From NCBI GenBank assembly GCA_023014335.1, contig JAECYW010000001.1:1798001-1862000 (forward strand): a stretch of 64,000 bases of DNA. Direction: 5' to 3'. A program made the position numbers and the translations under genes. Positions 5,518 to 50,255 of the stretch are shown here, piece after piece. Positions within the stretch are counted from its first letter, which is position 1. Every line of letters begins with the position of its first letter. The notes beneath the pieces are model-generated. The model searched no databases and was not told the origin of the DNA. It was given only the letters and a program-made list of their open reading frames with translations. The DNA is from Galerina marginata (taxonomy: Eukaryota; Basidiomycota; Agaricomycetes; Agaricales; Galerinaceae).

Positions 5518-6276
5518 GCCTTGTTCTTCAGCTTTTTCCAGGTCCTTGGTGTTTAGTTCTTCGCCGTTCATCAGCCTCAGAATATTGGCGACAACATCTG
5601 TCGAATTGTAGCAAGGAATGATAGTACTCCAACCTGTAAGATGAAGTGAGCTATCTTCAAATAAATATATCCTGGAGCTTACGCACCGTCGATGAGGCAA
5701 GAGGTACAATCGGCATGTAAAAATTGGGTTTGATCAGGGATTGTCGTCCTTCTGCTAGTTTAGGAGAGGGTCATCGGAAGGGTTGAACGTCGCTCTCGCG
5801 AGTGGCATCGGTTTGGTGAAGATATACCTGGCCGCGGCATGGTCCATGCGTACCGAACTGACCCTTGGGCCTCAACAAGTTCAGATTATTGCTGCCCTCA
5901 AATTCCTGTGCCAGATTGATAATAGTGGCGCCTAAACTGACTTCTCCGTGCCAGTGGTGGTATGCAGATTTCTCGGCGATGAAACCGCACAATTGGAAGA
6001 ACTACAAATTGTCATGAATTACGCAATGGGATATCTCGCAAAGCATTCGCGGCTTACCTTAGCCTCTAGCCTCAATTTTTAGTTCGCGTTTGAACGGACC
6101 CCAGATAACCTTCTTCAGACCAGCTTTTAGTCCATCGGCCACAGACGGTATCAAGCGAGTATTATCAGCCATAGAGAAGAGAATCAATTCCTTGTTGATA
6201 AAATCAGTGTATGGTATTTCGTCCATGCGATGGTCCACATAAGTTCCGGGCTTAAACTGACGAAGCCATTCTTTGC

Positions 6277-8024
6277 CATGTGGTTGAAGTACTCGCGAGT
6301 GTCCGCATCCTCACCGGTTCCTAAACCCTGTACCAGAATGTAAAAATGGGGAAGAATGCAAAAATATAAATTGCGAACCTTGAAGTACTTGGATACCCAC
6401 CTCTTTCCATCTGGCATGTCCTCCAGCCATTGCTCGTACTCAGGGATAGTAAAAAAATCACGGCGTTCTTTTCTCCACCAGGAATTCGGGTAGCTTCAAA
6501 AGCGATGAATGTGAGTATGGTTTAAGAAAAGAATCACTGGACGAAACTGATCAGTCATAATCATAATCCTGCCGTATCGAAGGTTCGTAGTCCTTGTTAT
6601 GCTGAAGGCCCATAATCTTTTTGATGTTCTGAATTTCCTCATTCTTCATGATTTGATCGTGCTTCGCTTTGTGGACGTTGAGTAGCTTTCCGCGCAAAGG
6701 GAATACGCCAAAGTTATCTCGACCAACAACTCCAAGACCACCAACAGCCAGAGCCTTGGCAGAGTCACCCTCAGTGAGTATGAGAGAGCAGTCCTTGGCA
6801 TGCTTGGTGCTAGCATTATTGGTGTCGGAAAGTTTCGTTAAACCAAGAAGCCTATGGGCAAAATGAGAAGATTTCCTCATAAACCAAATCATTGTAAACT
6901 CGCCTCTCGCGCTTCGTGACATCCGTCTTCTTGATTTGCTCATCGGCTTTATATTTCGTCAAGTTTAGAACAATCGACGACTTGAGAACTGAAAAACCTC
7001 TGTAACTCCGTATTCGGAAAAATGAGGTGGTCTTACCTTTTTCCATGAAGTCCTCCGTTTGCTTCCGAATTTTGAAGCCGGCAGAGTAAGTCTGGGCATG
7101 CGTTCCTCGCTTTCGTGTCGAAATCGAGTTGGCAAACGAGACATGCTGAAAGGAGCCATCCGACACCGCGAAGGCAATTCCCCATCGGGAGCCAGCTTGG
7201 CCATGGATAACGGTAGGCTTTGGCTGTGCAGGTCCTCCAGAGGTCTCTGCTGCTTCAGCTTGTGCCGAGTTGATGTACATTTCGACATATTGTTTGAAAT
7301 TCTTGATTTTGAACCGCTCGTCGTTGAGGAAAACTTTGATGTCCTTGACAACTCTAGCCATGTTGTAAACACGCTTCCTTAGAAGGCTAGCGGTGTCTTC
7401 GTCGATCTTGTCCATTCCGAAATGCTTCAAGTCCGGTTTGAATGTTATCTGGGTATACTCTTCGGACTTTGGATTCTTCGTGATTATGGGTTTCCCGCAC
7501 TTTCCCATATTATCCGTCCAGGTTTGCTTGTACTTCTGCTGCGTGTTCTTGTCTGCAGTCTCGACAGTAAACTCGTGAGAATAGATGTTCGCTAGTTTCG
7601 CGCCATAGCCGTTACGACCACTGGTGAGTTTCTTCTCGTTGTCATCGTAGTTCGACGAAGAAAGCAAGTGGCCAAAAATCAATTCTGACACGTATATCTT
7701 CTCTCGCTCATGAATCTCGATGGGGATCCCGCGGCCATTATTGAAAACGGATATTGTGCTTTCCTCTACATCAATGGTAACCTTCAGTGTGTCCATATTC
7801 GAGTCGTTGATCTAAATACTCGGTCAGATAGTTCCCTTGCAGGGTGCACATGACACAGACCTTGTTATTAGCAGTCCACGATCTTGAAGAACCCAGGCAC
7901 GTATTTTACATCCCGATGTCCGAATCCGGTCGTTTGAGGATATGTTCCAGTTGAGTGAGCTAAACCAATTCGTCAGACGAAATGATCCATAAAGCAGGGG
8001 AAACAGACCTTAGTATACGTCTCC
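6277..8024 (-). repeat. Inverted duplication, donor-side copy (1,748 bp)
   Basis: Matches 24326-26073 in reverse complement without any indel (paired coordinates always sum to 32350). I found one substitution (6909 versus 25441). The topoisomerase II homology runs on beyond both ends here but not in the other copy, so this is likely the parent. Confidence 0.95.
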
Positions 8025-18909: not shown

Positions 18910-19481
18910 TCATATCGCGGCTGGGCCAATTCTCGTCATATCTGGACAGTATTTCGAATTTATGTCTCGCCTGACATCCTTCATATGAGTAACATAAGCA
19001 GGTGGATTGCATCAATTCATACCTCTTCCTGAATTATTGAAATCGCTATTGGGGGCTGCTTGGTTATTGTCAAACCTTTGAACAATGTGCGCTGCTCGGT
19101 GTAATATCTGATACGAGCCTGTACGAATTTCTGTCATGGGAAGGCTCAGCTAAATAATTTAGCTCGAGAAAAGACAAAGAACCTGAACGATCTTGTACAT
19201 GGCCGGATCCCATTTTAAGACCGCCTGAAGATTGTAGCCTCCCCTCCCAGGCGATCCTACTTGGCCGCTTGGTTTAAGGATGAGATCATCTAGAGAGAGA
19301 CGGTATTACTATGACTAGCGACGCAAATACTTAGTGACAACACACCAGAAGATCGTTCACCGATGGGGGGTGATATCAATCGAGCCTGGTCTTCGTTGTT
19401 TGAGATGATCTTGCAGATTGATGGATTGGGATTTTGGAGCAACGGATACACAGTATCAATTTCATAGCACTGAGATAACAT
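18910..19481 (-). CDS. Hypothetical protein, 139 aa, four exons
   Basis: Exons 19481-19346, 19289-19183, 19130-19023 and 18978-18910 are joined by introns of 56, 52 and 44 nt, all GT-AG and all in phase. The result is a continuous 139-aa frame ending RIGPAAI-stop. The coding parts include LKWDPAMYKIVQKFVQARIR and YYTEQRTLFKGL, a helical segment. The family is not recognised. There may be a further exon upstream of 19481, since the N-terminus is not typical. Perfect phase across three introns makes chance unlikely. Confidence 0.6.
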
Positions 19482-20054
19482 CCAAAGAAGCAGATACGAA
19501 TGACGAAGTGGTTAATAATTAAGTACATTGTTGCAGTGAGGTTGCTGCCTTAATTGCCTCCTGAGCTGTGTCCCCGACTTACGGTGCACAGGTTGACATG
19601 GGATAAATCAGCAGTTGTCGACGGAATCCTGGCCGTGTCTCCTCTATCCATCATTGGATCCGCGGAAAAATGGAGGAGCGGAGAGGCGGAAAAAGGAAGC
19701 ACGGAATTATATGACTGCTTGAACTAGATAAGACAGCCAGTCACCCAGATTCCATATGAAAGCCTCAAAATTCACGGACCGAGATGCGCTACCGACGTGT
19801 CTCCGTGGTCACTACGGCCCTATAGATTATCCAGTCTTATCCATCCGTTGAAGGACAGGGTTGACGAAAATGAAGACAACGTTGCACCGGTGCGAACTAT
19901 CAGAACCAAGGCCATTGCGTTGAGGGATGTGGTGATTATCCGAGTCGAGGTTGGCCTCGAGTAATGGGCAGTGCAGGCGACCCTAGCCAAGAACCTCTGA
20001 TACCAGTATTGACCGTACCATGAGGTGGCCTCGCCTGACGAATAAAAATAAACT

Positions 20055-20160
20055 GACGTTTGGATATTCTCAATAGGTTTTCGTGCGACTCGACTGATTC
20101 CCGAATTGGATAGTCATTTCTGAATCGGGTGAGTGTGGAAGTAAAGCTCCGCGACATATA
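20055..20160 (-). repeat. Dispersed ~110-bp repeat, copy C
   Basis: Shares ATGTCGCGGAGCT with copy A, and CACGAAAACCTA plus ATCCAAACGTC with copy B. It ends about 40 bp before the start codon of the exon-array gene, so it may form part of that gene's promoter. Confidence 0.6.
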
Positions 20161-20198
20161 ACCACTACTTGCCCTCTTTTGAATTCGACCTTCATACC

Positions 20199-22765
20199 AT
20201 GGCAAACTACAACGCTGAGCTCCCCTACCATACCACTGAGCTCCCCTTCCCAACCGTTGCCGGTCCCCAACCAGCACACCCACACCCCTCTTTATTGGAT
20301 ACGCACGTTCTTATTTCCCTTTCACTCGACGCCTTGATTAATGCGGCTTTTTGTGTGTGTTTTTAGGGACATAGATCCCAATTCGTTCCTACCGGCATTT
20401 TTGTTGGATTTGACTGCCGATAGCACGAACGCGCTTTCTTCCAGTTCGTTGGAACCCTACAACCCTCAACGAGTTAATGTATGATCACTCATATTCGTCG
20501 CATTTTTAAACTTACCAAACGTCGCTTTATAAAGTTCGACCAGCGCTCCGACCAGATTAGCCAGGGAGGTTCTTCCCAACCACATCAGAACAATCGTTTC
20601 GCCCAGAGTGAACCCCAGTGGGGTTATGTATGGTCATTCATTTTCGTCACCCTTCTAAACTCACCAAACTTCTCTTTAAATTTTGACCAGCGCTCGGACC
20701 AAATTGGCCAGGGAAGTTCTACCCAGCGTTATCAATACAATGATGCCGGCCAGAGTGAACCCCAGCGGGGTCATGTATGGTCCTTCATTTTCGTCACCTT
20801 CTAAACTCACCAAATCCCTCTTTAAGTTCGATCAGTCCTTGGACCAATTTGGACCGGGATATTCTTCCGGCCAACAACACTATAACGGCCCCCGCGCGCC
20901 CCAGAGCGAACCTCAGCAAGGTCATGTATGATCATTCATATTTGTTGCATTTTTAAACTCACCAAAACCAGCCATTCGACCAATTCGGGCTGGGATATTC
21001 TCACCGCCAACAGCAATCTAGAGGCCTCCGCGTTCCCCAAAGCGAACCTCAGCGAGGTTATGTATGGTCCTTCATATTCGTTGCATTTTAAAACTCACCA
21101 AGCTTCTCTTTAAATTTCGACCAGTCCACGGACCCATTCAACCGGGGACATTCTTCCGGCCAACAACAATATCGCGGCGTCGCGCAGGAAGAGTCCCGTC
21201 AATTTAACCGCACTTCGCAGAAGCAACCTCAACGAGATCTCGTATGATCATTCATTTTCGTCACCTTTTTAAACTCACCAAATTTCTCTTTAAATTTCGA
21301 CCAGCACTTGGGGCTGGGAGATTTTTCCAGCCAACAACAATATAACGGCCCTCGCGCCCCCCGGAGTGAACCTCAGCGAGGTTATGTATGGTCATTCATA
21401 TTCGTCACATTTTTAAACTCACCAAACTTCTCTTGAAATTTCAACCAGGACTTGAACCATTCGGGACAGGCAAATATTGGCCAGTCCCACCCAGGCAATC
21501 GCGCTTCACAGAAGCGACCTCGGGTATGGTCATTCATTTTCGTCGCCTTTTTCAACTCGCTAAATTTTCTCTCTAAATTTCAACCAGAACAACTCCGCCG
21601 GGCTAGAGCAAGACAGCCGCGCGCTCCAGAGCTATCCCGGCTCCGTCCAAAATTCCGACGTAGTCTCGCAGGACATGTCCCAGCCCAACAGCCGCGTCGA
21701 AAACTCCGTTATCCACTTGCCAGAAAGTCAGCCCGAGGGGCAAGTATGGCAACAATACGTACCGCCACAAACGCCTGTCCCTAAAGCAGCAGGGCGGAAG
21801 CCAAAAAAAGCGAGAACCGAGCCCGCCCCCGCCTCCGCCCACGCCCCCGCCCCCGCCCCCGCGCCGCTCCTACCAGCTAATGGCATTAACTTCGCTGCCC
21901 TTCTCAGTGCAAAGAGCTACTTTGCTGCCCGGGCAAAGGCGAGTGATTTGTTCTTGCCACCCACCGCGTTAGATTACACGGTGGAATCCGATTTCGATGT
22001 GGTTTTTGTTAGCACTTTCAATTTCATACGGGATGTCCAAAAATTCACCGAGGACGACCTTCCGGACAACAAAGCCGTAAGGCTTGAGGTAAGGACTTTC
22101 TTTCATTTGTGTCGGCGTGATGCTGAGCGATATTTACTACTCTAGATAATTCTTAGGGTGAACAAAGACTTCGAGATGGAGGCGGCTATGTTGAACAAGA
22201 TTGTTTGCGCCATCTACGGCATCACAAAAGGGATGACTCGGACCACGCTCATGATGCTGCCCATAATGCACAATCTGTCAAATTGTGAACATGTTAATTC
22301 CCGGACGGATGAAAACGAGCAGGTAGTGCAACATCCATGTTATGGAATGAAACCACGCACTAACTGATTTACTCTTAGGGGGACAGATTATACTTCACTG
22401 AACCTGCCGCCAAGAAATTCACCCTACATTCATACTTTGGATCACCGGATTCTTCAGCAGTTGCCCATCCTGATCTATTCAAGAGGAAATTCACCTCGAA
22501 GAAGCTATGCTTGTCACACATCCGGGTCAGTATCACTTTGGTCCAAATGGCTTCTAAATTCATTGTTTTGATTAATTTTTGTTCAAAGGTTCGTTACAAC
22601 CTGGAGTCGCGCATACTCACTGAGAGTTTGATCGTGAGTGAAAGGTCGTACTGCGAGCTCTTACTCCCACAGTATATGCAATTTATGGATGACGCTATGT
22701 TGGAGCCTGAAGCTGGTATAGACCTCACCAAAACGTTTTCAGAATGGTGGGACGAGGGGGAGTAG
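20199..22765 (+). CDS. Multi-exon protein with tandemly duplicated exons (about 610 aa)
   Basis: Exon 1 starts at ATG 20199. Exons 2-13 are 20367-20478, 20544-20627, 20691-20774, 20836-20925, 20972-21061, 21125-21241, 21305-21385, 21449-21523, 21588-22088, 22146-22322, 22379-22525 and 22589-22765. All introns after exon 2 are phase 0. Exons 3-9 encode 25-39 aa units related to DQFGPGYSSGQQHYNGP followed by QSEPQRGY, giving a Gln/Gly/Ser-rich disordered repeat region. Exon 10 adds a basic stretch (GRKPKKART) and an Ala-Pro run, then a folded C-terminal part with alternating helices and strands (LPPTALDYTVESDFDVVF, MQFMDDAMLEPE). That part is agaricomycete-specific to my knowledge and I cannot name it. 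The exon 1-2 junction is out of phase by one base in the solution I can find. Confidence 0.75.
20367..21587 (+). repeat. Tandem array of exon-intron units
   Basis: Eight introns of 46-65 nt (20479-20543, 20628-20690, 20775-20835, 20926-20971, 21062-21124, 21242-21304, 21386-21448, 21524-21587) are near copies of one another. Each starts GTATGRTC, contains a TTTTTAAACTCACCAAA core and ends TTTCGACCAG or similar. They alternate with homologous exons of 75-117 nt whose lengths are multiples of three. The unit is about 145-180 bp. Confidence 0.9.
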
Positions 22766-23851
22766 GTCTGATTCTCTGTCATTAAAAATATCACCTGACC
22801 TTGCGATACAGAGCCATGGAAAGGACCTTACCGCGCCTAAACTTCGCACCACGACCACACTCACCAGCCGAGCCCACCATGCCCGTAGCCTCCGGCTCAA
22901 AATCGACGACAGAAATGCAGGGCTAATGAACATTGCCTGCAGCCATCCCGGCAAAGCAATCGTCGGGATCATTGTATTTTACTGGCTTTCTTGCGTCGCA
23001 TTCCGTTGTATTGGGTTTTCGGATAATTTGTATATCGCCGCAGAATAATTATTTGTCGCTTCGTTCCTAGAATGGAATTCGTGTATATTTACGGTTCAGT
23101 AGAAGCTGCAGCTGTGAAGGGCTGGATAACCTGATTGGCCGTCTTAATTCTCTCAATCCTAAACGGTGTCTTGAGCCCCATAGCAACAGGTACTTCCGTT
23201 TGGTTAGTGGCCCTAACCGATAATTGTGTATCGGCCCTCTGTTATGTACTTCAGTACATCACCGATCCCCTCGACCCCGATCCGCTCACTGGAAGTTCTG
23301 AGCTGGGAATTCTCTATGACACCCTCAACGAAATTAAGCGCTATGAAGACGGCGCTACACCCCCAACCGGAACTGCAAAGGCTCGGGTCAAGTACTGAAG
23401 TACTAGTGCCGGTAGATGACTTACTACATTATAATAATGTTTGCTTCGATGTTCACGACGTTTTGATTGAAAACAATTATCGCCGTCTTGAAATATAGTT
23501 GTTCATCCGTTGTTCATGGACTATGCTAGAAGTGTGGCTGAGTGAGCGACTGACATGCTGTCGAAGTTTTTCTAGTCGCGGGCGAGCGCAGCTCAGCCGT
23601 TGGTGCGCAGGAAGGCTTGGAGAAGGGACTGAGCGGCGACGAGGGCGGGAGTTGTGTATGACAGCGCGATGGCCTCAGTTACGCGTCTAGGAGGCTATGT
23701 CATCCTGCTTTTTTGTTGTTGTTAACTCAAGATATAACTACGGTAATCACTTGCACTTACAAACATTAATCACTTTTAATTGGATCACATTTGTCTAAAG
23801 TCTAGTATCTATAGTGCTACGATCAGTTGATCCAGAGAGATAAGAGGAAAG
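22766..23851. other. Gene-poor interval
   Basis: 3' flank of the exon-array gene, then short ORFs only. A frame at 23135-23398 begins with a hydrophobic run (LILSILNGVLSPIATGTSVW) but has no ATG start and no support from splicing. Confidence 0.4.
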
Positions 23852-23987
23852 AGAGAAAAGCGTGCGAAAGTGATGGCGCAGGAGGGAAGTCGCGCCGGAG
23901 TTCAGCTCCTCGGTAGTCTGGTTTACCGAGGAGCTGAACTCCGGCGCGACTTCCCTCCTGCGCAATCACTTTCGCACGCTTTTCTCT
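23852..23987. repeat. Near-perfect hairpin, 64-bp stem and 8-nt loop
   Basis: Left arm 23852-23915, loop 23916-23923 (GTCTGGTT), right arm 23924-23987. The arms are reverse complements with one mismatch. Weaker inverted similarity continues outward for about 30 bp on each side (GATCASTTGAT). No ORF overlaps meaningfully. Confidence 0.95.
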
Positions 23988-24230
23988 GTTTCCTCAAGAC
24001 CACTATCTAGTCATCAAGTGATCGTCCATCCAGCCTCGTAAGTTCATTTCATTCATCGTTAGCCAGTAGATAGAACATAAGAAATGAAATATAATAGTAT
24101 GGATCGTGTTTGGAAACGAGAAAACAAATGGGTCTGGCTATTTGGCTCTGAAGCTGTGATTGGGCTCAATGCGATGTTACAGAGGGATGCTCGCTAATAG
24201 ATTATTGACAGAAAATCGCCTTTGAAACAC

Positions 24231-26073
24231 CATGAGCCGCGTATGTTAATGTTCCATTCGAATTACGCCGGACTGATTATCTGCTTCTAGGAAGTTCCGA
24301 TCGCGGTTCGACGTTTCCTGGATGTGGAGACGTATACTAAGGTCTGTTTCCCCTGCTTTATGGATCATTTCGTCTGACGAATTGGTTTAGCTCACTCAAC
24401 TGGAACATATCCTCAAACGACCGGATTCGGACATCGGGATGTAAAATACGTGCCTGGGTTCTTCAAGATCGTGGACTGCTAATAACAAGGTCTGTGTCAT
24501 GTGCACCCTGCAAGGGAACTATCTGACCGAGTATTTAGATCAACGACTCGAATATGGACACACTGAAGGTTACCATTGATGTAGAGGAAAGCACAATATC
24601 CGTTTTCAATAATGGCCGCGGGATCCCCATCGAGATTCATGAGCGAGAGAAGATATACGTGTCAGAATTGATTTTTGGCCACTTGCTTTCTTCGTCGAAC
24701 TACGATGACAACGAGAAGAAACTCACCAGTGGTCGTAACGGCTATGGCGCGAAACTAGCGAACATCTATTCTCACGAGTTTACTGTCGAGACTGCAGACA
24801 AGAACACGCAGCAGAAGTACAAGCAAACCTGGACGGATAATATGGGAAAGTGCGGGAAACCCATAATCACGAAGAATCCAAAGTCCGAAGAGTATACCCA
24901 GATAACATTCAAACCGGACTTGAAGCATTTCGGAATGGACAAGATCGACGAAGACACCGCTAGCCTTCTAAGGAAGCGTGTTTACAACATGGCTAGAGTT
25001 GTCAAGGACATCAAAGTTTTCCTCAACGACGAGCGGTTCAAAATCAAGAATTTCAAACAATATGTCGAAATGTACATCAACTCGGCACAAGCTGAAGCAG
25101 CAGAGACCTCTGGAGGACCTGCACAGCCAAAGCCTACCGTTATCCATGGCCAAGCTGGCTCCCGATGGGGAATTGCCTTCGCGGTGTCGGATGGCTCCTT
25201 TCAGCATGTCTCGTTTGCCAACTCGATTTCGACACGAAAGCGAGGAACGCATGCCCAGACTTACTCTGCCGGCTTCAAAATTCGGAAGCAAACGGAGGAC
25301 TTCATGGAAAAAGGTAAGACCACCTCATTTTTCCGAATACGGAGTTACAGAGGTTTTTCAGTTCTCAAGTCGTCGATTGTTCTAAACTTGACGAAATATA
25401 AAGCCGATGAGCAAATCAAGAAGACGGATGTCACGAAGCGTGAGAGGCGAGTTTACAATGATTTGGTTTATGAGGAAATCTTCTCATTTTGCCCATAGGC
25501 TTCTTGGTTTAACGAAACTTTCCGACACCAATAATGCTAGCACCAAGCATGCCAAGGACTGCTCTCTCATACTCACTGAGGGTGACTCTGCCAAGGCTCT
25601 GGCTGTTGGTGGTCTTGGAGTTGTTGGTCGAGATAACTTTGGCGTATTCCCTTTGCGCGGAAAGCTACTCAACGTCCACAAAGCGAAGCACGATCAAATC
25701 ATGAAGAATGAGGAAATTCAGAACATCAAAAAGATTATGGGCCTTCAGCATAACAAGGACTACGAACCTTCGATACGGCAGGATTATGATTATGACTGAT
25801 CAGTTTCGTCCAGTGATTCTTTTCTTAAACCATACTCACATTCATCGCTTTTGAAGCTACCCGAATTCCTGGTGGAGAAAAGAACGCCGTGATTTTTTTA
25901 CTATCCCTGAGTACGAGCAATGGCTGGAGGACATGCCAGATGGAAAGAGGTGGGTATCCAAGTACTTCAAGGTTCGCAATTTATATTTTTGCATTCTTCC
26001 CCATTTTTACATTCTGGTACAGGGTTTAGGAACCGGTGAGGATGCGGACACTCGCGAGTACTTCAACCACATG
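24231..26073 (+). pseudogene. top2: DNA topoisomerase II pseudogene, short inverted copy
   Basis: 24326-26073 is the reverse complement of 6277-8024 with one substitution seen. It therefore carries the same ATPase block (24554-25498), the same TOPRIM block (25407-25799), the same frame breaks and the same loss of the DxD motif, so it was copied after the gene had decayed. The copy begins at the codons for ETYTK and stops at an ATG triplet at 26071-26073. A short upstream segment (24231-24325) reads MSR, a canonical intron, then EVPIAVRRFLDV in the frame of ETYTK, giving a short chimeric open frame of unknown origin. No intact enzyme can be made from it. Confidence 0.93.
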
Positions 26074-27059: not shown

Positions 27060-27175
27060 ATCAGCCATAGAGAAGAGAATCAATTCCTTGTTGATAAAAT
27101 CAGTGTATGGTATTTCGTCCATGCGATGGTCCAGATAAGTTCCGGGCTTAAACTGACGAAGCCATTCTTTGCCAT
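27060..27175 (-). pseudogene. top2: Topoisomerase II fragment, 116 bp
   Basis: Matches 6164-6279 in the same orientation with one difference seen (GTYLDH here versus GTYVDH in the long copy). It encodes KEWLRQFKPGTY and DFINKELILFSMAD. It ends exactly where the 24326-26073 copy ends, sharing the three bases of an ATG, but lies in the opposite orientation to that copy. Confidence 0.9.
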
Positions 27176-27346: not shown

Positions 27347-27687
27347 CTTGAAATTGTCCTCGCATAGTCGCCGGTTGATGTGCTGGTTCAGCCAGCGAAT
27401 AGGCACCGCAATGACAGCTGGGGCATAAGATTGTCTGATCAAGCCAGGGGAATATCCGAACTCGCAGATGCCGTTGGATGTGGGCCACAAGTGACAGAGA
27501 GCCAACGGGAAGGCGAAAGAGTTTTGATGGCGGTTGAGCGGTTGAGCTTTTACAAAAGTAAGCAGCAAGGCCAGAAGATGTATGATATCTACATATACAA
27601 AGCAACAAAGGTTTTGACTTTGACTGGGACAAGTCTTGAAGTTGTCTGGCACATAAGTTTGAAATCGGGCTTAAGTCATATGTTTTA

Positions 27688-28209
27688 CAGCGCTTCCATA
27701 ATCTAATGAGAATCGACTTTTTTTATTTTTTTCCGATTTCCCGATTTAGAACTGCTTAATTTGGGTATTTGAGGCACGTGCACTTCGCCTAACGCTTGGC
27801 CGGCCACTGGGCTGCCCTACACTTGGCCTCCTCAGTCGCAGAAAAGGCCCCAAAAGCAAGTAAAATCATTTTGTTCAGAAGTAGATGCTTTTTATTCCTG
27901 TATTATCACACAGAAGAACAAACACTATAGCCTCTCGACGAAACTTGTACAAAACTAAGTACTGCTGCCCTTCTTCTGGAGTTAAAACAAATTTATGGTG
28001 TTACTGGATGCTACAAGGATACCGTGTCGTCCTGTGAACATAAAGATGTCTGTTTTACCGATGAAAAAGTCAGAAATGCGGTGAAAGACGGCCAGATATC
28101 GATGATAGGCGAAGTGCACGTGCTTCAAATTCCCAAATTGAGAAATTCTTAATCGGGAAATCGGAAAAAAATAAAAAAAGTCGATTCTCATTAGATTATG
28201 GAAGCGCTG
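27688..28209. mobile_element. MITE with ~100-bp terminal inverted repeats and TA target duplication
   Basis: A 522-bp element begins CAGCGCTTCCATAATCTAAT and ends with its reverse complement. The terminal 59 bases match perfectly, and similarity continues to about 100 bp (27688-27789 against 28108-28209). It is flanked on both sides by TA (27686-27687, 28210-28211), as for Tc1/mariner-type elements. The interior has no transposase frame, so it is non-autonomous. Confidence 0.85.
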
Positions 28210-29880
28210 TAAGATCTTCGCATTTTCTTAACTTGCTTCATCTCAGTGCCATTGTAGTCACGACCGCTGGCTGTAGATTAGATATGGAAATGCCATCAGT
28301 GGCAGTGCAGTCCTGTTGTAGATGAGCCAAGTTGAACGAGCTCGAGGTTGCGACCTGCCATTGCTCGCCGCGTTTCTCATGCTTCGCTGTCTCAGCTTTG
28401 GCCAGAACTAGACTACTGGGGTCTGCCTGATACTCCTTCTCTACCATGTTAACTGCAGAGTCAACTTATGTCTCTGTTGTTTCTCAAAAGTTCATCTTTT
28501 AAGTTTCTGGGTCTCCGATCTTGCTCTGGATGTCCACTGCTTTGGTGCTCTTTCCACTCAGTACTCAGCACTCAACCTTCTAAGTTCTGGGGTGGGCAGG
28601 ATGTTTACCGGTACTTAGGGGTCGCTGATATGTTGCAGGCTGCCCAGAAAATCAATGGAAATTATTTGTTTCTCGACCCACTACTCTGACCAAAGGGCTT
28701 TTGATTGCGTGTGGAGGCAGGTCAACATCAATAGTCCTCGAATTCTAGGCCGTTGAATCCTGATACGAACACGCCTTAACCGATACCAGCATGGACTTTT
28801 CTCGCGGTTTAGGGCTCAGAGACAATCGCGACGGACTCTTTTTGCTTGCCCATTGTCACGGTCCCTTAATAACTTCGGCTTCCTTTCTGGAAGACGCCCT
28901 CAATCCTCCACTAGCCTTCCCACAATCTCAGAGTGTCTCCGAATTGAGGCGAAGGTTTGCCGGAAGTGGCTAATAGATTCCCAACTGCACGATTTAGAGC
29001 TGATTCCTTATATTTTCTGCTCTTTAGGTGACAGACGGTAGATCAAAGAACTCAAAATGACTCGAGGACCAAGTCAAAAGCAGGATTCAGGACGTCAATG
29101 CGTCAACAGCTTATATGGTAGTTTTTTGCTAACTATAAATTTTCACTGCAGCCAATCTGTTCGTGAACTATGTGCGTAGAGTTTGGACGATCGTTATTGA
29201 CTCCAAACTCTTTTGGTGGTTAGGTTAATATAATTTATACTGGAACCCTGGTTGCTGGCCGGATACCCATTATTCCGCCTTTCACTCCGGATCATCAAAT
29301 CTGTAAGCAAAAATAATTCCTGCTGCAATGCACATCTTGGCTCACAATAATCATTTATCATTGTAGTGCTGTCTGGAATTATTCCCTTCAGAGGCATCCT
29401 CGACTTGGATCACCTACGACAATAACTCTGCGTACTAATTCTTGAATGGCGAATAGCGCTTCTCATGGTTTCCTGTCTCGCGAACAGTCCGTCGGCGAGT
29501 CATTGGCATCTGCAAAGCATAGTAAGATTTTTTCTTGGGGGGGCGGGGTTTAAGCATTTATGTATTACACTGGATGCTTATTATTGGACGATATTTCTTC
29601 GATGAAAGCAACTCTCACCGTGCGGAGCACGGGTACCCTGCTAGTTGAATTCAAATGTGCAACTTACATACCTGATGATAACAAGTGAATGATCGAGCCT
29701 GACAGAATCCGAACGTCCAAGAAGTCAGCGCCATCATGTTTCTAAAAATAGGATGATGCATGTTCTGACGGATTCAACATCACACTTACTCACTCGATAC
29801 TTCTTTACACAAACCTACTGGGCAAGAAAACGAACATCTCGAAAGCTTCTTCGTCTCGATCGCGGAAAGAGACAAAAGTT
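28210..29880. other. No supported gene
   Basis: Only a weak minus ORF (28238-28447, 69 aa, MVEKEYQADPSSLVLAK) that could be one exon or chance, plus short frames with no motif. Otherwise nothing recognisable over 1.6 kb. Confidence 0.4.
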
Positions 29881-37285: not shown

Positions 37286-40200
37286 ATTACGCAAAACGGA
37301 GGCAAGAAAGCGCCCGTCGCAGCCCGGACGCAGTGTACCTTCTCCTACGAAAGCGAGATTAGAAGGCCTAGCCCAACGCCGGGCTGGATTTTTGGCCGAG
37401 ACTGGGGCCCATAGATCCAGCGATACCGCTCCTGAAGGTACCTCCAGTATCTTACAAGAAAAGGGACAGTTAAATCTAACTTCATTTCCCTAGGAAACGA
37501 CATCCAGCCTCACTTTGCAAGCCAGCAGCAAGCTCACATCACTCTCACAGAGCCTGAGAACACCAATATTATTCCTCAGCGTAAGATTTGTTAGCCCAGA
37601 CGTATTACCTTGAGGTTAATCAAGGGCTTTCTTACCATATAGATGGTCTTTCCCATGATATGGAGCAGCTTCATTCCAGCCTTGCGGCGCTTTCGATGTC
37701 GAAAGCACGTCGGCAGGGATTCCCGCCTGCAGTAACATGTACAAGTACTTCACCGGAGTTCTATGACACTAGTAGGCGTTCTGTTACCCTCTCTACGACC
37801 TACAGCCTTCTGACAATAGTTTAACTCAGGTCGGTTCTACATTCCTACAACCCTTTCACAGGTGGCATCTTCGGCCTTGGTTTCTTCGTTTAATGCGCTT
37901 GCCTCAAATCTCTTCTGTGGAACCCCACTAAAGCTATCTGCGGCCAATCTCGCGGCCTCTAAGCAAATCAGGCAACTCACATTGGTAGAAGCCCGTGGAT
38001 TGGGTGGGACTACACCCATGGATGAGAAGTGTGTTGATTCATCTCCAGCGGACATCCGCACTGTCTACAGGATGTTTGAAACCCTCGATCCCAAACTCAC
38101 CGTGTATGCGTGCTGTCCCATTTCGGGATGTTCTACTATTTACCCTCCCATAGAAGGTGAGAGGGGTGTTCTTGAATACCCGGTGCAGTGCTCTCAGGTC
38201 AAGTTTGGTAAGACATGTGGTGAGATGCTGGTGAAAGACTGTGCCGTCGTCAATGGACAGAGTACACCACGACCTCTGAAACCTTATTCCTATCACCATT
38301 TTAACGACCATGTCGCTGCCATGCTCTCCCGCCCTAGTATAGAAGAGGCTATCGAATCCTACGCTCGAACTGGTGGGCTTGAAGCTGAGTTAACTGATAT
38401 TATCTCATCTCAGGTTCTCCGTGGGTTCCAGGACGCGTCCGGTCGCCCTTTCCTTAGGGATGAGGGTTCCGAACTTTGCCTCGTATGGGCGTTTGCCGCT
38501 GACTGGTTTAATCCGCATTCAAACAAAGCATCAGGAAAGGCCGTTTCTACTGGAGTTATGGCAATGATATGTTTAAGCCTTCCGCCAACTCTGCGATACC
38601 TCGAGGAAAACATTTATCTCGTTGGGGTAATTCCAGGACCTCGTGAACCGGCCCTCGACGCCATCAATCATTTTATGACCCCCCTAATGCACGACCTCAA
38701 GGCATCGTATGAATGTGGAGTCTACTATTCGCGCACTTTCAAACACTCAGCTGGCCGCACCTCCTTTTCCTGTGTTATACCTGTTATTGCTGATACTCTG
38801 GCATCCAAAAAGGTTACAGGTCATTGCGGACACGGCGGAAAATATTTCTGTTCCCGTTGTCGCCTTCCCCGTTCCGAAATCGATAACGTCGACCCTTCAT
38901 CCTGGCCGCCAGGACTAACACGGGCTGAACACGAAGCACACGCTGAAACCTGGCGCGCGGCCTGTAACAAGTCTAGACAAGAATCTCTTGTGAAGGCCCA
39001 TGGCGTGCGGTGGTCTGCTCTCCTCCTTCTTCCATACTGGCAACCAAGTGACTGGTCGATCACAGAAGGAGTACATGTTCTTCTTCTTGGAGTCACAGCA
39101 CGGCACTGCCGTGATCTTCTGGGGTTGAACTTTGGAAATCTTCCGCAAGAGGATGACGACGAGTCTCCGTCCTTAGAACGTATGGAACATGCTCGACGGG
39201 TATTCGCCAATGGGTCGCCTAGTCAGCTGCATAAGCTGAATATAGATACCCTTAAACAACTCTGCATCGAAGGGGGGCTTTCGCTTCCCCCTCGCAAGAA
39301 AGGTCGAAGGTCCAAGAAGGTGTACATTGCTGTTCTGCTGGTAGGTGTTTTCTTAATTTCATGTTGAGGACAACTACAATACAATCTTTTGGGATCAGGA
39401 TGATTCGTCCACTGTCCCTAGATCTAGTGATGATGACTTCGATCTCGGGACTTTTTTTGACGGGCATACAAAGGAGGCACACATTTCACCAACCTCGTTG
39501 AAAAAGACATCTGGAGGTAACTCTGGAGAAGATGATTTGGCGTCAACTCCTCCTGAAGTCATTACGCAACAGACTTTGATGGCAATTCGCAAGCATATCG
39601 AAGAAACCCTACGTCCCGATTGGCAGGCACACCTTCCAGCCGACTTTGGCTCCCCAGCACATGGAAAACTTAAGGCTGACCAATGGAGAACTGCACTGGA
39701 ATTTGACATCCCAGTTTCATTGGTGCAGGTTCTCGCGAGTCACAAGTCTACAGGAAATGTCGAAGCAGACGCACGCCTCCATCAAGTTGTTGAACACACG
39801 TTCGATCTCGCCATGGCACTTGCTTGGGGTCTCTCTCGACGGACATCTAAATTTCACGCAGAAAGGTATAGTTTTTACATGCAGCGTTATTTAATCGGCA
39901 TCCAAACCCTGTTTCCGGAGTACAACCTCAAACCCAACCACCATTATGCTCTTCATATCTCCGATATTCTTATCCTGTTCGGGCCACTGCATGGAACTTG
40001 GGCATTCTCGTTGGAACGACTAATTGGCAGACTTCAAAAGCTAAACACGAATTCAAAAATAGGTCAGCCCAACAAATATGTGATCTTGGAGAACAATTTA
40101 TCTGAAATTATTTCTAGGGGATATGGAAAATACGGCCATGCACATGTTCTGCCGGCGGTCCAACTTTATCCGTCTGATGGAGTCCCCAGATTGTCCTTCC

Positions 40201-45867: not shown

Positions 45868-47409
45868 ATGGTTGAGAATCACATTTTTCGTTGCTCAAAA
45901 GGTGCTTTTGCGCCTAGTGTTAGGAAGTGTAAAGGGAGAATCACTCTTGCCAGACGACTCCCTCCAGAAATACTGGCGTCTATATTTGAAGAATGTGTTC
46001 TCGACGGATGGACACGGACGCCCCTGGTCGCCTCCCATACTTGCTCTAGTTGGAGGAAAGCAGCGTATATTCCAACAGTCTGGTCGCACATATACGTTAA
46101 CCTCGGTGCTCGCGACCCGTGCCAGCGTACCCGCCTATGGCTCGACAGGTCTGAAGACACACTTCTCACGATTGACCTTGAGGTCGGGCCTGACCAAACC
46201 CACTTGAAGAATATCATGGAGGTTTTATTAACGGAGGTCCAGCGATGGAAAGTTTTGACCATAAAGTCTACATTTTTCGATCCTGTCAAACGAATCCTAC
46301 AAACTTGTCACAAGCCTACGCCTCAACTGCGCACTATTGATGTATCGGTTGACCAAGAAATCATGTTGGCCGCAAACAATGCAGACGACGATGCGCACGA
46401 ACTAGTGAGTTTGCGCACTTCCTTTGTGGATGCACCGCTGTTCCGGTCTCTTCGCATCTCCCGAAACATCCTTCCAGGTCGTCAGACCTTACCCTCCTCC
46501 ATCACCAACTTATACCTGCGACTGCCCTGCCACCACCCATCCACCACCCAATCACTCTCTTCCATTCTCCGTTTACTTGAGGAACTTCCCAATATTGAGA
46601 CCCTCTCTATGGAAGTGCCCAACGGACACCATCAACATTTTCAGTTGGACGTTGAAGGAGGAGAGTCGGTTGAGTTAGCAAGTCTCAAGTCTTTAACTTT
46701 GATGGGGTCGAACAATATGTTCGGCTTCCTGCCTCATGTTAGAGTATCGTCTCTGACGCATCTCGTCCTTCGCTCATCGCTGGATTATTTTCAAGCGGAA
46801 GAAATCGGCTCATGGGTCCTTCGTTTCCTTCAGGAGTCAACTCCTCCAATTTCCTTGCTTGAATTTCGAGATCTGGCACTCGACTCTCGTGTATATCACG
46901 GGCTCTTTGCCATGTTACCATTATTAGAAGAACTGCGCCTTCACGATAGTGATATTCTCGACATCATGTTAGAGCAGTTGAATGGACCCCAAGGTTTGTG
47001 CCCTTTGCTCAAGCGATTGGATCTCAGATGGTGTGGCAGGTTGTCAGGACGTGCCGTAGTAGAATTGGTTCGAAGTCGCTTGCGGACAGACACGGATAAT
47101 GCAGATATCTCATCGGCATCTCTACCTCTGGCAGAAATCACCCTCATAAACTGTTCCTTCGTAAACGAGGAAAATATCGTGGATCTCGCTGAAATCACTG
47201 TTTGTCGTTTAATTCATCGCGGACAAGATGATTTCTGCAGTACGTATTTGATAAACCTCCCAAAACGGACCCAATGTTCATGACAATACCTTTTCATAGA
47301 AGCCTATGGATGCTGCGACAATGAACGATATCGAAGGCGGCTAAAGCAACGAAGCATGTTCCACCCTTCAATCCGACGCAGCCATGCAAAGTTTCGACTC
47401 GTCTTTTGA
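45868..47409 (+). CDS. F-box protein with leucine-rich C-terminus (493 aa)
   Basis: Exon 1 (45868-47239) starts at ATG. A 60-nt intron (47240-47299, donor GTACGT) leads to exon 2 (47300-47409), ending SHAKFRLVF-stop. The F-box-like motif is at residues 26-75: ARRLPPEILASIFEECVLDG, then HTCSSWRKAAYIPTVWSHIY. The rest is irregular leucine-rich repeats (SLKSLTLMGSN, LTHLVLRSSLDYF, LLKRLDLRWCGRLSGRAVVE). By family knowledge such proteins bind Skp1 through the F-box and present substrates to an SCF ubiquitin ligase. The substrate is unknown; these genes are massively expanded in agaricomycetes. The gene looks intact. The foldback element starts 394 bp downstream. Confidence 0.9.
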
Positions 47410-47803: not shown

Positions 47804-50255
47804 CACCTCGTCATCACGTACCTTATGACCAAATAGACTGTCAAACACCCCCGTTTTGCCGTGACCAACTGTTCTGATTCTTCTTATTCCCAGCCACTGC
47901 CAATAATTGTCGACTAATTCCTCGCTTATATGCCTAAGTCCCACATCAAGGTATGTTCCCTTTTCGTCACTGTCCTTCCCATGCCGTGTCCGCACTTCCC
48001 TCGGCATCACTTACCGTGCCTAATCCGGAAGGCGCATCCCGCGCATCAACCGCCGCCTGTGCTCGTCGTCGGTGGACGACTAGCACGATATTTTGACCAT
48101 TCCTGCACCGTTTCCCTCCATTTTTTTTGTGTATCATAGTCTATAGAACCTGTATACATGTAATATAACATTATATACTTAAAAATGCGACCAGGAGTGC
48201 TGTAAAGTACCATTCTGAGTATGTAGATAGAGGGCTACCACCCCCAGCACCACCTATACACCTCTGAGGGCCATGATAAATGGTCTATATAATATTTAAA
48301 TGGTCTATAGATATAGGGAGAGCATATGAGTGATCAGTGCTATGGCCTAAGGGGTCTATATGGGTGATGTAATGGGCTATCTACCTTTGAGGTGTTAGGA
48401 ATAATATGGGGTTGATTCAGGGTGGTTGTAAGGCCATAGGTGTGTTATAAGAAGGTCAATATATGGTATGAAGCAGCCAGAACAATGAGGAGGAGCACCT
48501 GGAGGGTGTTGATGCTTAACTTTCCCCCTATGAATACCCTATCCTCACATCGTTCCAAGGCCTTATAAAATAAATGGAGGCAGCCAATTACCTTTAGTAC
48601 ATTTTGGTAACATATTGTAGTAGTTTAAATAAATTATAGAGACCTTGGGACGCAGATCTGAGGGTGGGGAGCAGGATAACCTACCATACCATGGAAATGC
48701 GACCCCCAAGTCACAATAAAATTATTTCTCCACATGTAAAGACGTTTAAACATACTAGGTAGTATCCTTAACGTTATTTGGTAGTGGAGAACTGCCTGAA
48801 TATGAGTAGGGAAGATGATAGTGGGGAGGTAGGTAGGTGTGTCTCAAAAATGCGAATATCATTAATTGTGACACATGTATTGTAGCTAAAATTATTATGA
48901 GTAGACAGATAGAAGGTAGCGAGTGAGAAGTACGGATTACAAAAAGAATGGAGTGGATAGAGGAGGTGTAAAAATTGTAATGAGCAAAATGGTCTGAAAG
49001 CGACGCACAGGAAAGGTCATCGATGTGACGTGGGTAACGATATGCCTTTTTGATGGTCCCAAAATCATCATTGATATTTTCCTCCACAACGAAGCAAGCT
49101 ATTGCTTCAATTCCTTTTGCAGTCTTTACAATATGTATCCATCATTCACTTTGTCAATTCAGAATAATTTTAATAAGAGTATATGAGTCACAGTTGGCGA
49201 TATCCGCATTTTTGAGACACACCTACCTACCTCCCCAGTATCATCTCCCCTACTCATATTCAGGCAATTCTCCACTATCAGATAACGTTAAGAATACTAC
49301 TTAGTATGTATAAACGTCTTTACATGTAGAGAACTAATTTTATTATGACTTGGGGGTCGCATTTCCATGGTATGGTAGGTTATCCTCCTCCCCACCCTCA
49401 AATCTGCGTCCCAAGGCTTCTATAGTCCATTTAAACTACTAAAACATGTTACCCAAATGTACTAAAGGTAATTGGCTGCCTTTATCTATTTTATAAGGGC
49501 TTGGAACGAGATGAGGATAGGATATTTATGAGGGGGAAGTTAGGCATCAGCATCCCTCAGGTGCTCCTCCTCATTGTTCTGGCTGCTTCATACCATATAT
49601 TGACCTTCTTATAACACACCTATGGCCTTACAACCACCCTGAATCAACCCCATATTATTCCTAACACCTCAAAGGTAGATAGCCCATTACATCACCCATA
49701 TAGACCCCTTAGGCCATAGCACTGATCACTCATATGCTCTCCCTATATCTATAGACCATTTAAATATTATATAGACCATTTATCATGGCCCTCAGAGGTG
49801 TATAGGTGGTGCTGGGGGTGGTAGCCCTCTATCTACATACTCAGAATGGTACTTTACAGCACTCCTGGTCGCATTTTTAAGTATATAATGTTATATTACA
49901 TGTATACAGGTTCTATAGACTATGATACACAAAAAAAATGGAGGGAAACGGTGCAGGAATGGTCAAAATATCGTGCTAGTCGTCCACCGACGACGAGCAC
50001 AGGCGGCGGTTGATGCGCGGGATGCGCCTTCCGGATTAGGCACGGTAAGTGATGCCGAGGGAAGTGCGGACACGGCATGGGAAGGACAGTGACGAAAAGG
50101 GAACATACCTTGATGTGGGACTTAGGCATATAAGCGAGGAATTAGTCGACAATTATTGGCAGTGGCTGGGAATAAGAAGAATCAGAACAGTTGGTCACGG
50201 CAAAACGGGGGTGTTTGACAGTCTATTTGGTCATAAGGTACGTGATGACGAGGTG
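47804..50255. mobile_element. Palindromic foldback element, 2,452 bp, 8-bp target duplication
   Basis: The whole segment is an inverted repeat centred at about 49029.5: paired coordinates sum to 98059 with no net indel from the ends to at least 48858/49201. The outer part appears identical in both arms; the inner 170 bp of each arm has drifted. The ends are CACCTCGTCATCACGTACC and its complement, and both sides carry CTTCTTAC (47796-47803, 50256-50263). Length of target duplication suggests hAT or a similar class, but no transposase is encoded. Mirror ORFs near the ends (DVGLRHISEELVDNYWQW) are probably chance. It sits 92 bp upstream of the syntaxin start codon. Confidence 0.9.

What the first reader, a model, noticed from the sequence alone, without database searches (positions are those of the whole stretch)
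20367..21587. Tandem array of exon-intron units with introns more alike than exons
Eight consecutive introns share start, core (TTTTTAAACTCACCAAA) and end, and alternate with seven homologous exons of 25-39 codons, all phase 0. The gene grows by adding whole intron-exon units without breaking the frame, producing a Gln/Gly/Ser-rich repeat protein. The introns look more conserved than the exons, which is unusual: either recent unequal exchange, gene conversion guided by the introns, or selection on the intron sequence (for example for splicing of very small exons). Exon skipping would keep the frame and could generate many isoforms.
Basis: partly seen in the sequence, partly recalled or inferred. 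Interest (0 to 1): 0.85.

Follow-up and report, generated by a model that had tools for sequence, protein, structure and literature searches.

The report
Mushroom gene with repeated exon-intron units
A mushroom gene of unknown function carries seven copies of a small exon separated by nearly identical short introns; the copies look old and stable, and the introns look more alike mainly because the protein segment they interrupt seems free to change.

Summary
Eight introns (46-65 nt) alternate with seven homologous phase-0 exons (75-117 nt) at window 20479-21587. Mean pairwise identity is 84.8% for introns, 62.6% for exon DNA, 43.1% for exon protein. The array sits in a predicted 13-exon, 612-aa gene (20199-22765) with a weakly DUF6532-like C-terminus. 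The only homologue found, an annotated Galerina marginata protein, has the same seven repeat exons one to one, so the array predates the split from that lineage and unit number has not changed since. A second copy about 29 kb away has an identical array: one recent segmental duplication, but no recent unit growth. No introner family was found. Exons diverge equally at codon positions 1, 2 and 3 (0.34/0.38/0.37), introns 0.15, or 0.19 outside splice signals. Best reading: old duplication of whole intron-exon units, then loose exons beside splicing-constrained introns, possibly with some intron exchange. Ordinary in kind. A side lead is stranger: two DUF6532 paralogues keep introns 93% identical while fourfold sites differ by 45%, unlike one control pair.

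The parts
20199..22765 (+). Whole predicted gene, 13 exons, 612 codons, ATG to stop
   Evidence: Open spliced frame; N-terminus and repeat joints agree with the G. marginata protein P0001
20303..20366 (+). First intron, GC donor (GCACGT), phase 2; inferred from the frame needed to reach DTDIDPNSF as in P0001
   Evidence: inference, no transcript
20367..20478 (+). Exon before the array; its 3' end resembles the repeat-exon ends
20479..20543 (+). Array intron i1 (65 nt); another AG at 20534 would add FDQ as in P0001; further AGs at 20555 and 20560
20544..20627 (+). Repeat exon e1 (28 codons)
20628..20690 (+). Array intron i2 (63 nt; open and in frame if retained)
20691..20774 (+). Repeat exon e2 (28 codons)
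20775..20835 (+). Array intron i3 (61 nt)
20836..20925 (+). Repeat exon e3 (30 codons)
20926..20971 (+). Array intron i4 (46 nt; lacks much of the 3' part of the unit intron)
20972..21061 (+). Repeat exon e4 (30 codons)
21062..21124 (+). Array intron i5 (63 nt)
21125..21241 (+). Repeat exon e5 (39 codons; 42 in G. marginata)
21242..21304 (+). Array intron i6 (63 nt)
21305..21385 (+). Repeat exon e6 (27 codons)
21386..21448 (+). Array intron i7 (63 nt)
21449..21523 (+). Repeat exon e7 (25 codons)
21524..21587 (+). Array intron i8 (64 nt)
21588..22765 (+). Four C-terminal exons (21588-22088, 22146-22322, 22379-22525, 22589-22765) with a distant DUF6532-like domain
   Evidence: (PF20149 E 0.2, below cut-off)

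Best explanation
An ancestral unit of one short intron plus a 25-30-codon exon was duplicated in tandem several times, most simply by unequal crossing-over (inferred), before the lineages of this fungus and Galerina marginata split (shown for the exons). Because the unit starts and ends at phase-0 splice junctions, each duplication kept the frame. The exons encode a Gln/Gly/Ser-rich linker, probably disordered (inferred from composition), with almost no amino-acid constraint, so they drifted at all three codon positions and gained or lost codons. The introns are so short that donor, branch site, acceptor and their spacing take up a large share of each (inferred), so they drift more slowly. The contrast 'introns more alike than exons' follows from those two rates, perhaps helped by occasional exchange between introns. 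Ordinary splicing then gives one 612-aa protein with a DUF6532-like C-terminal domain (predicted).
For: Unit anatomy and identities. Flat divergence over codon positions 0.34/0.38/0.37 and introns 0.153. pN 0.355 close to pS 0.389 over 21 exon pairs. Seven of seven exons one-to-one with G. marginata, 189 of 207 residues identical; that annotated protein has all seven in order. Unit number unchanged between the two lineages and between the two genomic copies. One control paralogue pair, L036/L048, also has introns less diverged than fourfold sites (70 of 197 against 50 of 102). No intron folds better than its shuffles at the usual level in 8 of 8 (z -1.71 to 1.44; at least 14 of 200 shuffles as good). 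The array matches nothing in the 69.3-Mb assembly but its own duplicate.
Against: Intron columns outside my definition of splice signals (18 of 66 columns removed) still diverge only 0.190 against 0.365 at exon third positions (bootstrap P 0.0026), so core signals alone are not enough. Like for like, intron over fourfold divergence is about 0.53 in the array and 0.72 in the control, so the array leans to the conserved side. Modelled introns of 46-60 nt elsewhere in this genome show that 63 nt is not the lower limit. Exon and intron distances are uncorrelated (Spearman -0.34 upstream, +0.34 downstream, P 0.13 each), and 20 of 45 informative intron site pairs conflict; of 919 simulated coalescent histories with a like number of informative sites 6 reach that. 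Star-like histories reach it in 16 of 33, but only 33 of 2000 of them give that many informative sites. So introns may have exchanged sequence. No transcript evidence; one control pair only.
Confidence: 0.6

Rival explanations
1. Gene conversion or unequal exchange inside the array homogenises the introns: the short, similar introns serve as pairing sites and exchange tracts end at the more diverged exons, so introns stay alike while exons keep their identity.
For: Conflicting intron sites, 20 of 45 pairs, more than coalescent simulations (6 of 919). Intron and exon distances uncorrelated. Intron columns outside the splice signals less diverged than exon third positions.
Against: Exons have not been homogenised since the split from G. 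marginata. Tracts of about 60 nt ending near splice sites would be needed: identity drops from 0.87 (last 6 intron nt) to 0.43 (first 6 exon nt) downstream, and from 0.91 (first 6 intron nt) to 0.58 (last 6 exon nt) upstream, although exon nt -7 to -12 are at 0.73 (ungapped). Star-like histories also give such conflicts (16 of 33).
Confidence: 0.25
2. The intron sequence has a function beyond constitutive splicing, for example regulated splicing of the small exons to give isoforms of different repeat number.
For: All repeat exons are frame-neutral. i1 has several AGs, and the G. marginata protein has FDQ there, which fits another one. Columns outside the splice signals show excess conservation.
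Against: No RNA fold clearly beyond shuffles in 8 of 8 introns, no Rfam match at gathering score in the window, no isoform data. G. marginata's annotated protein contains all seven exons.
Confidence: 0.1
3. The introns are introner-like elements that inserted repeatedly into a pre-existing coding repeat.
For: Near-identical introns in several places are the hallmark of introners (PMC4457414, abstract read; PMC9860276, start of abstract seen).
Against: The array matches nothing else in the assembly except its own duplicate (2 matches, 2 candidates). The core at up to 2 mismatches gives 30 places, 14 of them in the two arrays; the other 16 do not exceed the reversed-pattern control (27). All copies sit at the same place in a homologous unit.
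Confidence: 0.02

Closest known systems
Tandem exon duplication arrays (general; PMC9013439 and PMC12343006, only starts of abstracts seen)
   Same: Neighbouring homologous exons with their introns, phase-matched so that copy number can change without a frameshift.
   Different: Seven copies in a short fungal gene, introns of about 63 nt, exons much more diverged than introns; no evidence here of mutually exclusive use.
Galerina marginata CBS 339.88 hypothetical protein GALMADRAFT_607166 (P0001)
   Same: Same N-terminus and the same seven repeat exons in the same order.
   Different: 18 of 207 aligned repeat residues differ, 3 more codons in exon 5, 3 extra residues at the first array joint; the model ends inside the first C-terminal exon.
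DUF6532 (PF20149) fungal protein family
   Same: C-terminal domain aligns with paralogues L066 and L067 (33 and 31% identity); exon length and intron places around it correspond (147-nt exon between two introns in all three).
   Different: The window's own protein misses the Pfam cut-off (12 against 24 bits); the two paralogues sit at the cut-off (23 and 24.7 bits).
Snake three-finger toxin genes with segment switching in exons (ASSET; PMC2474615, passages read)
   Same: Intron segments highly alike (>85%) while some exon segments differ strongly; resembles the L066/L067 pair and, more weakly, this array.
   Different: There the comparison is between venom genes with known diversifying function; here units of one gene of unknown function whose exon change looks like drift.

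Membership tests
Tandem exon duplication array | Adjacent homologous exons, each with its own flanking intron | tested here: met
   Seven exons, eight introns, alignments
Tandem exon duplication array | Symmetrical phase so that units can be added or skipped in frame | tested here: met
   Seven of seven exon lengths are multiples of 3, joints phase 0
Mutually exclusive exon cluster | One exon of the group per transcript | not testable with these tools
   No transcripts held; the annotated G. marginata protein includes all seven, which argues against it
Introner-like element | Near-identical introns in many unrelated genes | tested here: not met
   Only the array and its duplicate match; core scan elsewhere no higher than control
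DUF6532 (PF20149) | Score above Pfam's gathering cut-off | tested here: not met
   12 bits against 24, E 0.2; not among the 46 matches of the family scan; link rests on paralogues L066/L067, so a distant relative only
Concerted evolution by gene conversion in the array | Repeats closer within than between species | tested here: not met
   For exons: best match is the orthologue in 7 of 7. For introns not tested: no G. marginata DNA was held.

The most novel reading that the evidence does not exclude
In one clade of DUF6532-like genes of this mushroom, non-coding parts evolve several times slower than silent sites of the coding parts, with the change falling near ATG, splice sites and stop, as in some snake toxin genes. 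The window array would be its intragenic form: coding units driven apart, or coding-specific mutation or segment replacement, while introns are held or exchanged. Basis: L066 against L067 has 20 of 271 intron positions different, 51 of 114 fourfold sites at conserved residues different, and flanks next to the gene mostly 82-98% identical in aligned, gap-free columns.
Probability: 0.15. Interest if true: 0.75.

Novelty: new member of a known kind. Interest (0 to 1): 0.4.

Why it matters
The array is a clean, relatively dated example of how a fungal gene can lengthen by whole intron-exon units without frame damage, and of why 'introns more conserved than exons' need not mean intron function when the exons are a loose linker. 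It gives matched clocks (intron, silent and replacement sites of the same age) inside one gene. If the L066/L067 pattern proves general in this gene family, it would open in a fungus the question raised by venom genes: what makes coding sequence alone diverge, even at silent sites.

Tried and rejected
Introner family: rejected. RNA structure in the introns, including pairing of TGGTC near the donor with GACCA at the acceptor: no intron folds clearly better than shuffles (z -1.71 to 1.44 over 8), dropped; no pair-count call was run. Introns as former or retained coding sequence: variable columns in the first 24 fall mostly on third positions of the host frame (2, 0, 6 by phase) but not in columns 25-40 (2, 3, 2), and six of eight have in-frame stops, so treated as chance. 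A first exon ending at the GT donor 20307: wrong frame, replaced by a GC donor at 20303 once P0001 was seen.

Similar arrays in other DUF6532 loci: one search listed self-matches in the fetched loci. L066 has five 69-nt purely exonic repeats without introns. L067 around 7586-7863 has one two-copy exon-intron duplication in a degenerate gene, exon 73 of 83 identical with 23 gap columns, intron 41 of 44. So absence of other arrays is shown only for copies of this one.

Deep intron similarity between the window gene and L066: three of three position-matched pairs beat shuffles (0, 9 and 3 of 500), six mismatched pairs did not (48 to 465 of 500). I first took it as unusual. In the wider comparison of 36 pairs it is modest (z 2.6 and 2.9 at 41% aa), mismatched introns reach z 3.1 elsewhere, and no control pair lies in that range of protein identity, so I do not lean on it. 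Cause of the L066/L067 pattern: cDNA-templated replacement was considered and disfavoured because the untranslated flanks are also conserved (inference); no donor found.

Solved structures: no usable match for the C-terminal domain (1 sequence at E 0.48, a designed protein). No structure prediction was run. Literature: DUF6532 is in 1 paper (listing only); (listings and starts of abstracts only) showed nothing I recognised as introns more conserved than exons in a fungal gene or as such an array; two searches returned none. The library holds open-licence papers only. The similar result for snake phospholipase A2 introns is recalled, not read. An earlier count gave a 9-bp target duplication for a nearby element; the flanks fit TA better.

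Full report
WHAT IS THERE. The window is positions 1,798,001-1,862,000 of contig 1 of a 69.3-Mb assembly of 43 contigs. The only protein homologue found (1 at E <= 1 in each of two searches) belongs to the mushroom Galerina marginata, 90% identical over the aligned part, so a close relative is likely (inference). In 20479-21587 eight introns that begin GTATGRTC and end CAG, seven of them with the branch-like CTYACC (the last has CTCGCT), alternate with seven exons. The core motif occurs 8 times in the window at up to 3 mismatches, against 0.32 expected and 0 of 100 shuffles reaching 8.

THE GENE. Joining the exons gives an open frame of 612 codons from 20199 to 22765 with 13 exons. The start and the first intron come from comparison with P0001 (GALMADRAFT_607166, 428 aa): both read MANYNAELP at the start and DTDIDPNSFLPAFLLDL later, which requires a phase-2 first intron; among the donors listed I took the GC donor at 20303. 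That is inferred. P0001 joins the seven repeat exons as the window model does, except at the first array joint, where it has three more residues (FDQ) that fit an acceptor nine bases upstream. P0001 is itself an annotation; whether transcripts support it was not seen. It ends inside the first C-terminal exon, so the last three exons rest on the open frame and on likeness to paralogues. The C-terminus is a distant DUF6532 relative (PF20149, E 0.2, under the cut-off), tied to the family through paralogues on contigs 25 and 12. A family scan gave 46 DUF6532 matches in the assembly (46 candidates scored); the window gene is not one of them.

INTRONS AGAINST EXONS. Introns average 84.8% identity over 28 pairs; exons 62.6% nt and 43.1% aa over 21 pairs. 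Exon divergence is flat over codon positions (0.34, 0.38, 0.37). Intron divergence is 0.153, and 0.190 when donor, branch and acceptor columns are left out (18 of 66 columns); a column bootstrap puts the latter below exon third positions with P 0.0026. pN 0.355 and pS 0.389 are close. At codons whose amino acid is conserved between exons, fourfold third positions differ in 34 of 119 and the other degenerate class in 39 of 126 comparisons (pairs are not independent). So the exons carry little amino-acid constraint, and introns change at about half the silent rate.

IS THAT UNUSUAL? As a yardstick I modelled parts of two DUF6532 paralogues of the same genome, L036 and L048 (four exons and four introns cut from longer genes). 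Fourfold third positions at conserved residues differ in 50 of 102, introns in 70 of 197 with 13 gap columns. Intron over fourfold divergence is about 0.72 there and about 0.53 in the array (0.153 against 34 of 119), so the array is somewhat, not dramatically, out of line. Only one such pair was measured fully; hydrophobin and P450 controls could not be cut out.

AGE AND MECHANISM. Each of the seven exons has its orthologue as best match in G. marginata (7 of 7), 189 of 207 residues identical, against 24-68% for non-orthologous exons across the two. Unit number is equal in both, and a second copy of the whole gene in this genome, inverted and about 29 kb away, has an identical array and codes for an identical protein. 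So the units arose before the split and have not multiplied since; continuing growth is not seen. Intron histories are less tidy: exon and intron distances do not correlate (Spearman -0.34 and +0.34, P 0.13), and 20 of 45 informative intron site pairs conflict. Simulated coalescent histories with a like number of informative sites reach that in 6 of 919 cases; star-like ones in 16 of 33, but star-like histories rarely give that many informative sites (33 of 2000 against 919 of 2000). Past exchange between introns is therefore possible, not shown. No RNA structure supports a special splicing device, and no dispersed family of this intron was found.

SIDE LEAD. Looking for similar arrays I compared two other paralogues, L066 (contig 25) and L067 (contig 12). 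Their coding sequences are 65% identical (pS 0.59, pN 0.27), but their five introns differ in only 20 of 271 positions with 1 gap column. Fourfold sites at conserved residues differ in 51 of 114, the other degenerate class in 31 of 84. Third positions differ by 0.45-0.55 in each of the four exons measured (exons 3-6 of six). Upstream, 13 aligned blocks of 50 columns are 0.82-0.98 identical without gaps in ten and 0.57-0.76 in three; with gaps counted, BLAST gives 76-79%. Downstream the first 50 columns are 0.95, then 0.68 and 0.59. The nearest relative of L066 found in this genome is L067 itself, so no donor of the coding parts was found. For the two introns shared by all nine genes compared, this pair scores z 10.3 and 14.7 over shuffles, while the four other pairs with 60-74% exon protein identity score between 0.6 and 7.5. 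This is a real outlier but a single pair; it resembles exon segment switching described for snake toxins (PMC2474615, passages read).

VERDICT. The explanation most in keeping with the evidence is old duplication of intron-exon units, loose exons and tighter introns, with intron exchange possible. That is a new member of a known kind. The stronger surprise lies next to it, in L066/L067, and needs more pairs before it is believed.

Noticed in passing
L066 2462-4286 (contig 25) against L067 2985-4465 (contig 12): Two DUF6532 paralogues whose introns are 93% identical and near flanks mostly over 80%, while the coding parts differ by 35%, including 45% at fourfold sites of conserved residues.
   Followed up: partly
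window 19912-23029 and contig 1 1785604-1788721 (L009 5604-8721): Recent inverted segmental duplication, 5 differences in 3118 bases, two gene copies with the same predicted protein.
   Followed up: yes
window 23182-26073, 27060-27175, 6164-8024; L009 and L010: Further pieces of the same duplication, rearranged: a stretch with weak gyrase B / HATPase-like matches (below Pfam cut-offs; topoisomerase II-like by recall) is present twice in opposite orientation in the window.
   Followed up: partly
contig 1 1789866-1790392 (end of L009, start of L010); relative at window 27685-28212: A 527-bp element with terminal inverted repeats and an apparent TA target duplication, inserted in the duplicated copy only; an 86% relative lies in the window.
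   Followed up: partly
L066 2637-2985: Five tandem 69-nt purely exonic repeats (98-99% alike, 23 aa each) in the N-terminal part of a related gene, so the same protein region grows there without introns.
   Followed up: partly
L067 7586-7863: A two-copy exon-intron duplication in a degenerate DUF6532-like gene; intron copies 41 of 44 identical, exon copies 73 of 83 with 23 gap columns.
   Followed up: partly
contigs 8, 14, 23, 29, 31, 35 (loci L037-L040, L045, L048-L055): Several DUF6532 genes occur as almost identical copies (99.5-100%) on different contigs, or five in tandem on contig 23 with about 19.5-kb spacing, as if recently dispersed.
   Followed up: no
window 47804-48907 and 49152-50255: Inverted repeat of about 1.1 kb at 95.5% identity.
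   Followed up: no
window about 19010-19285: Upstream of the gene, a stretch with 70-81% identical relatives on five other contigs, probably a dispersed repeat.
   Followed up: no
window 37820-39367 and 45868-47283: Open frames with a tnp2-type transposase match (PF02992) and an F-box-like match (PF12937), both over the Pfam cut-off.
   Followed up: no
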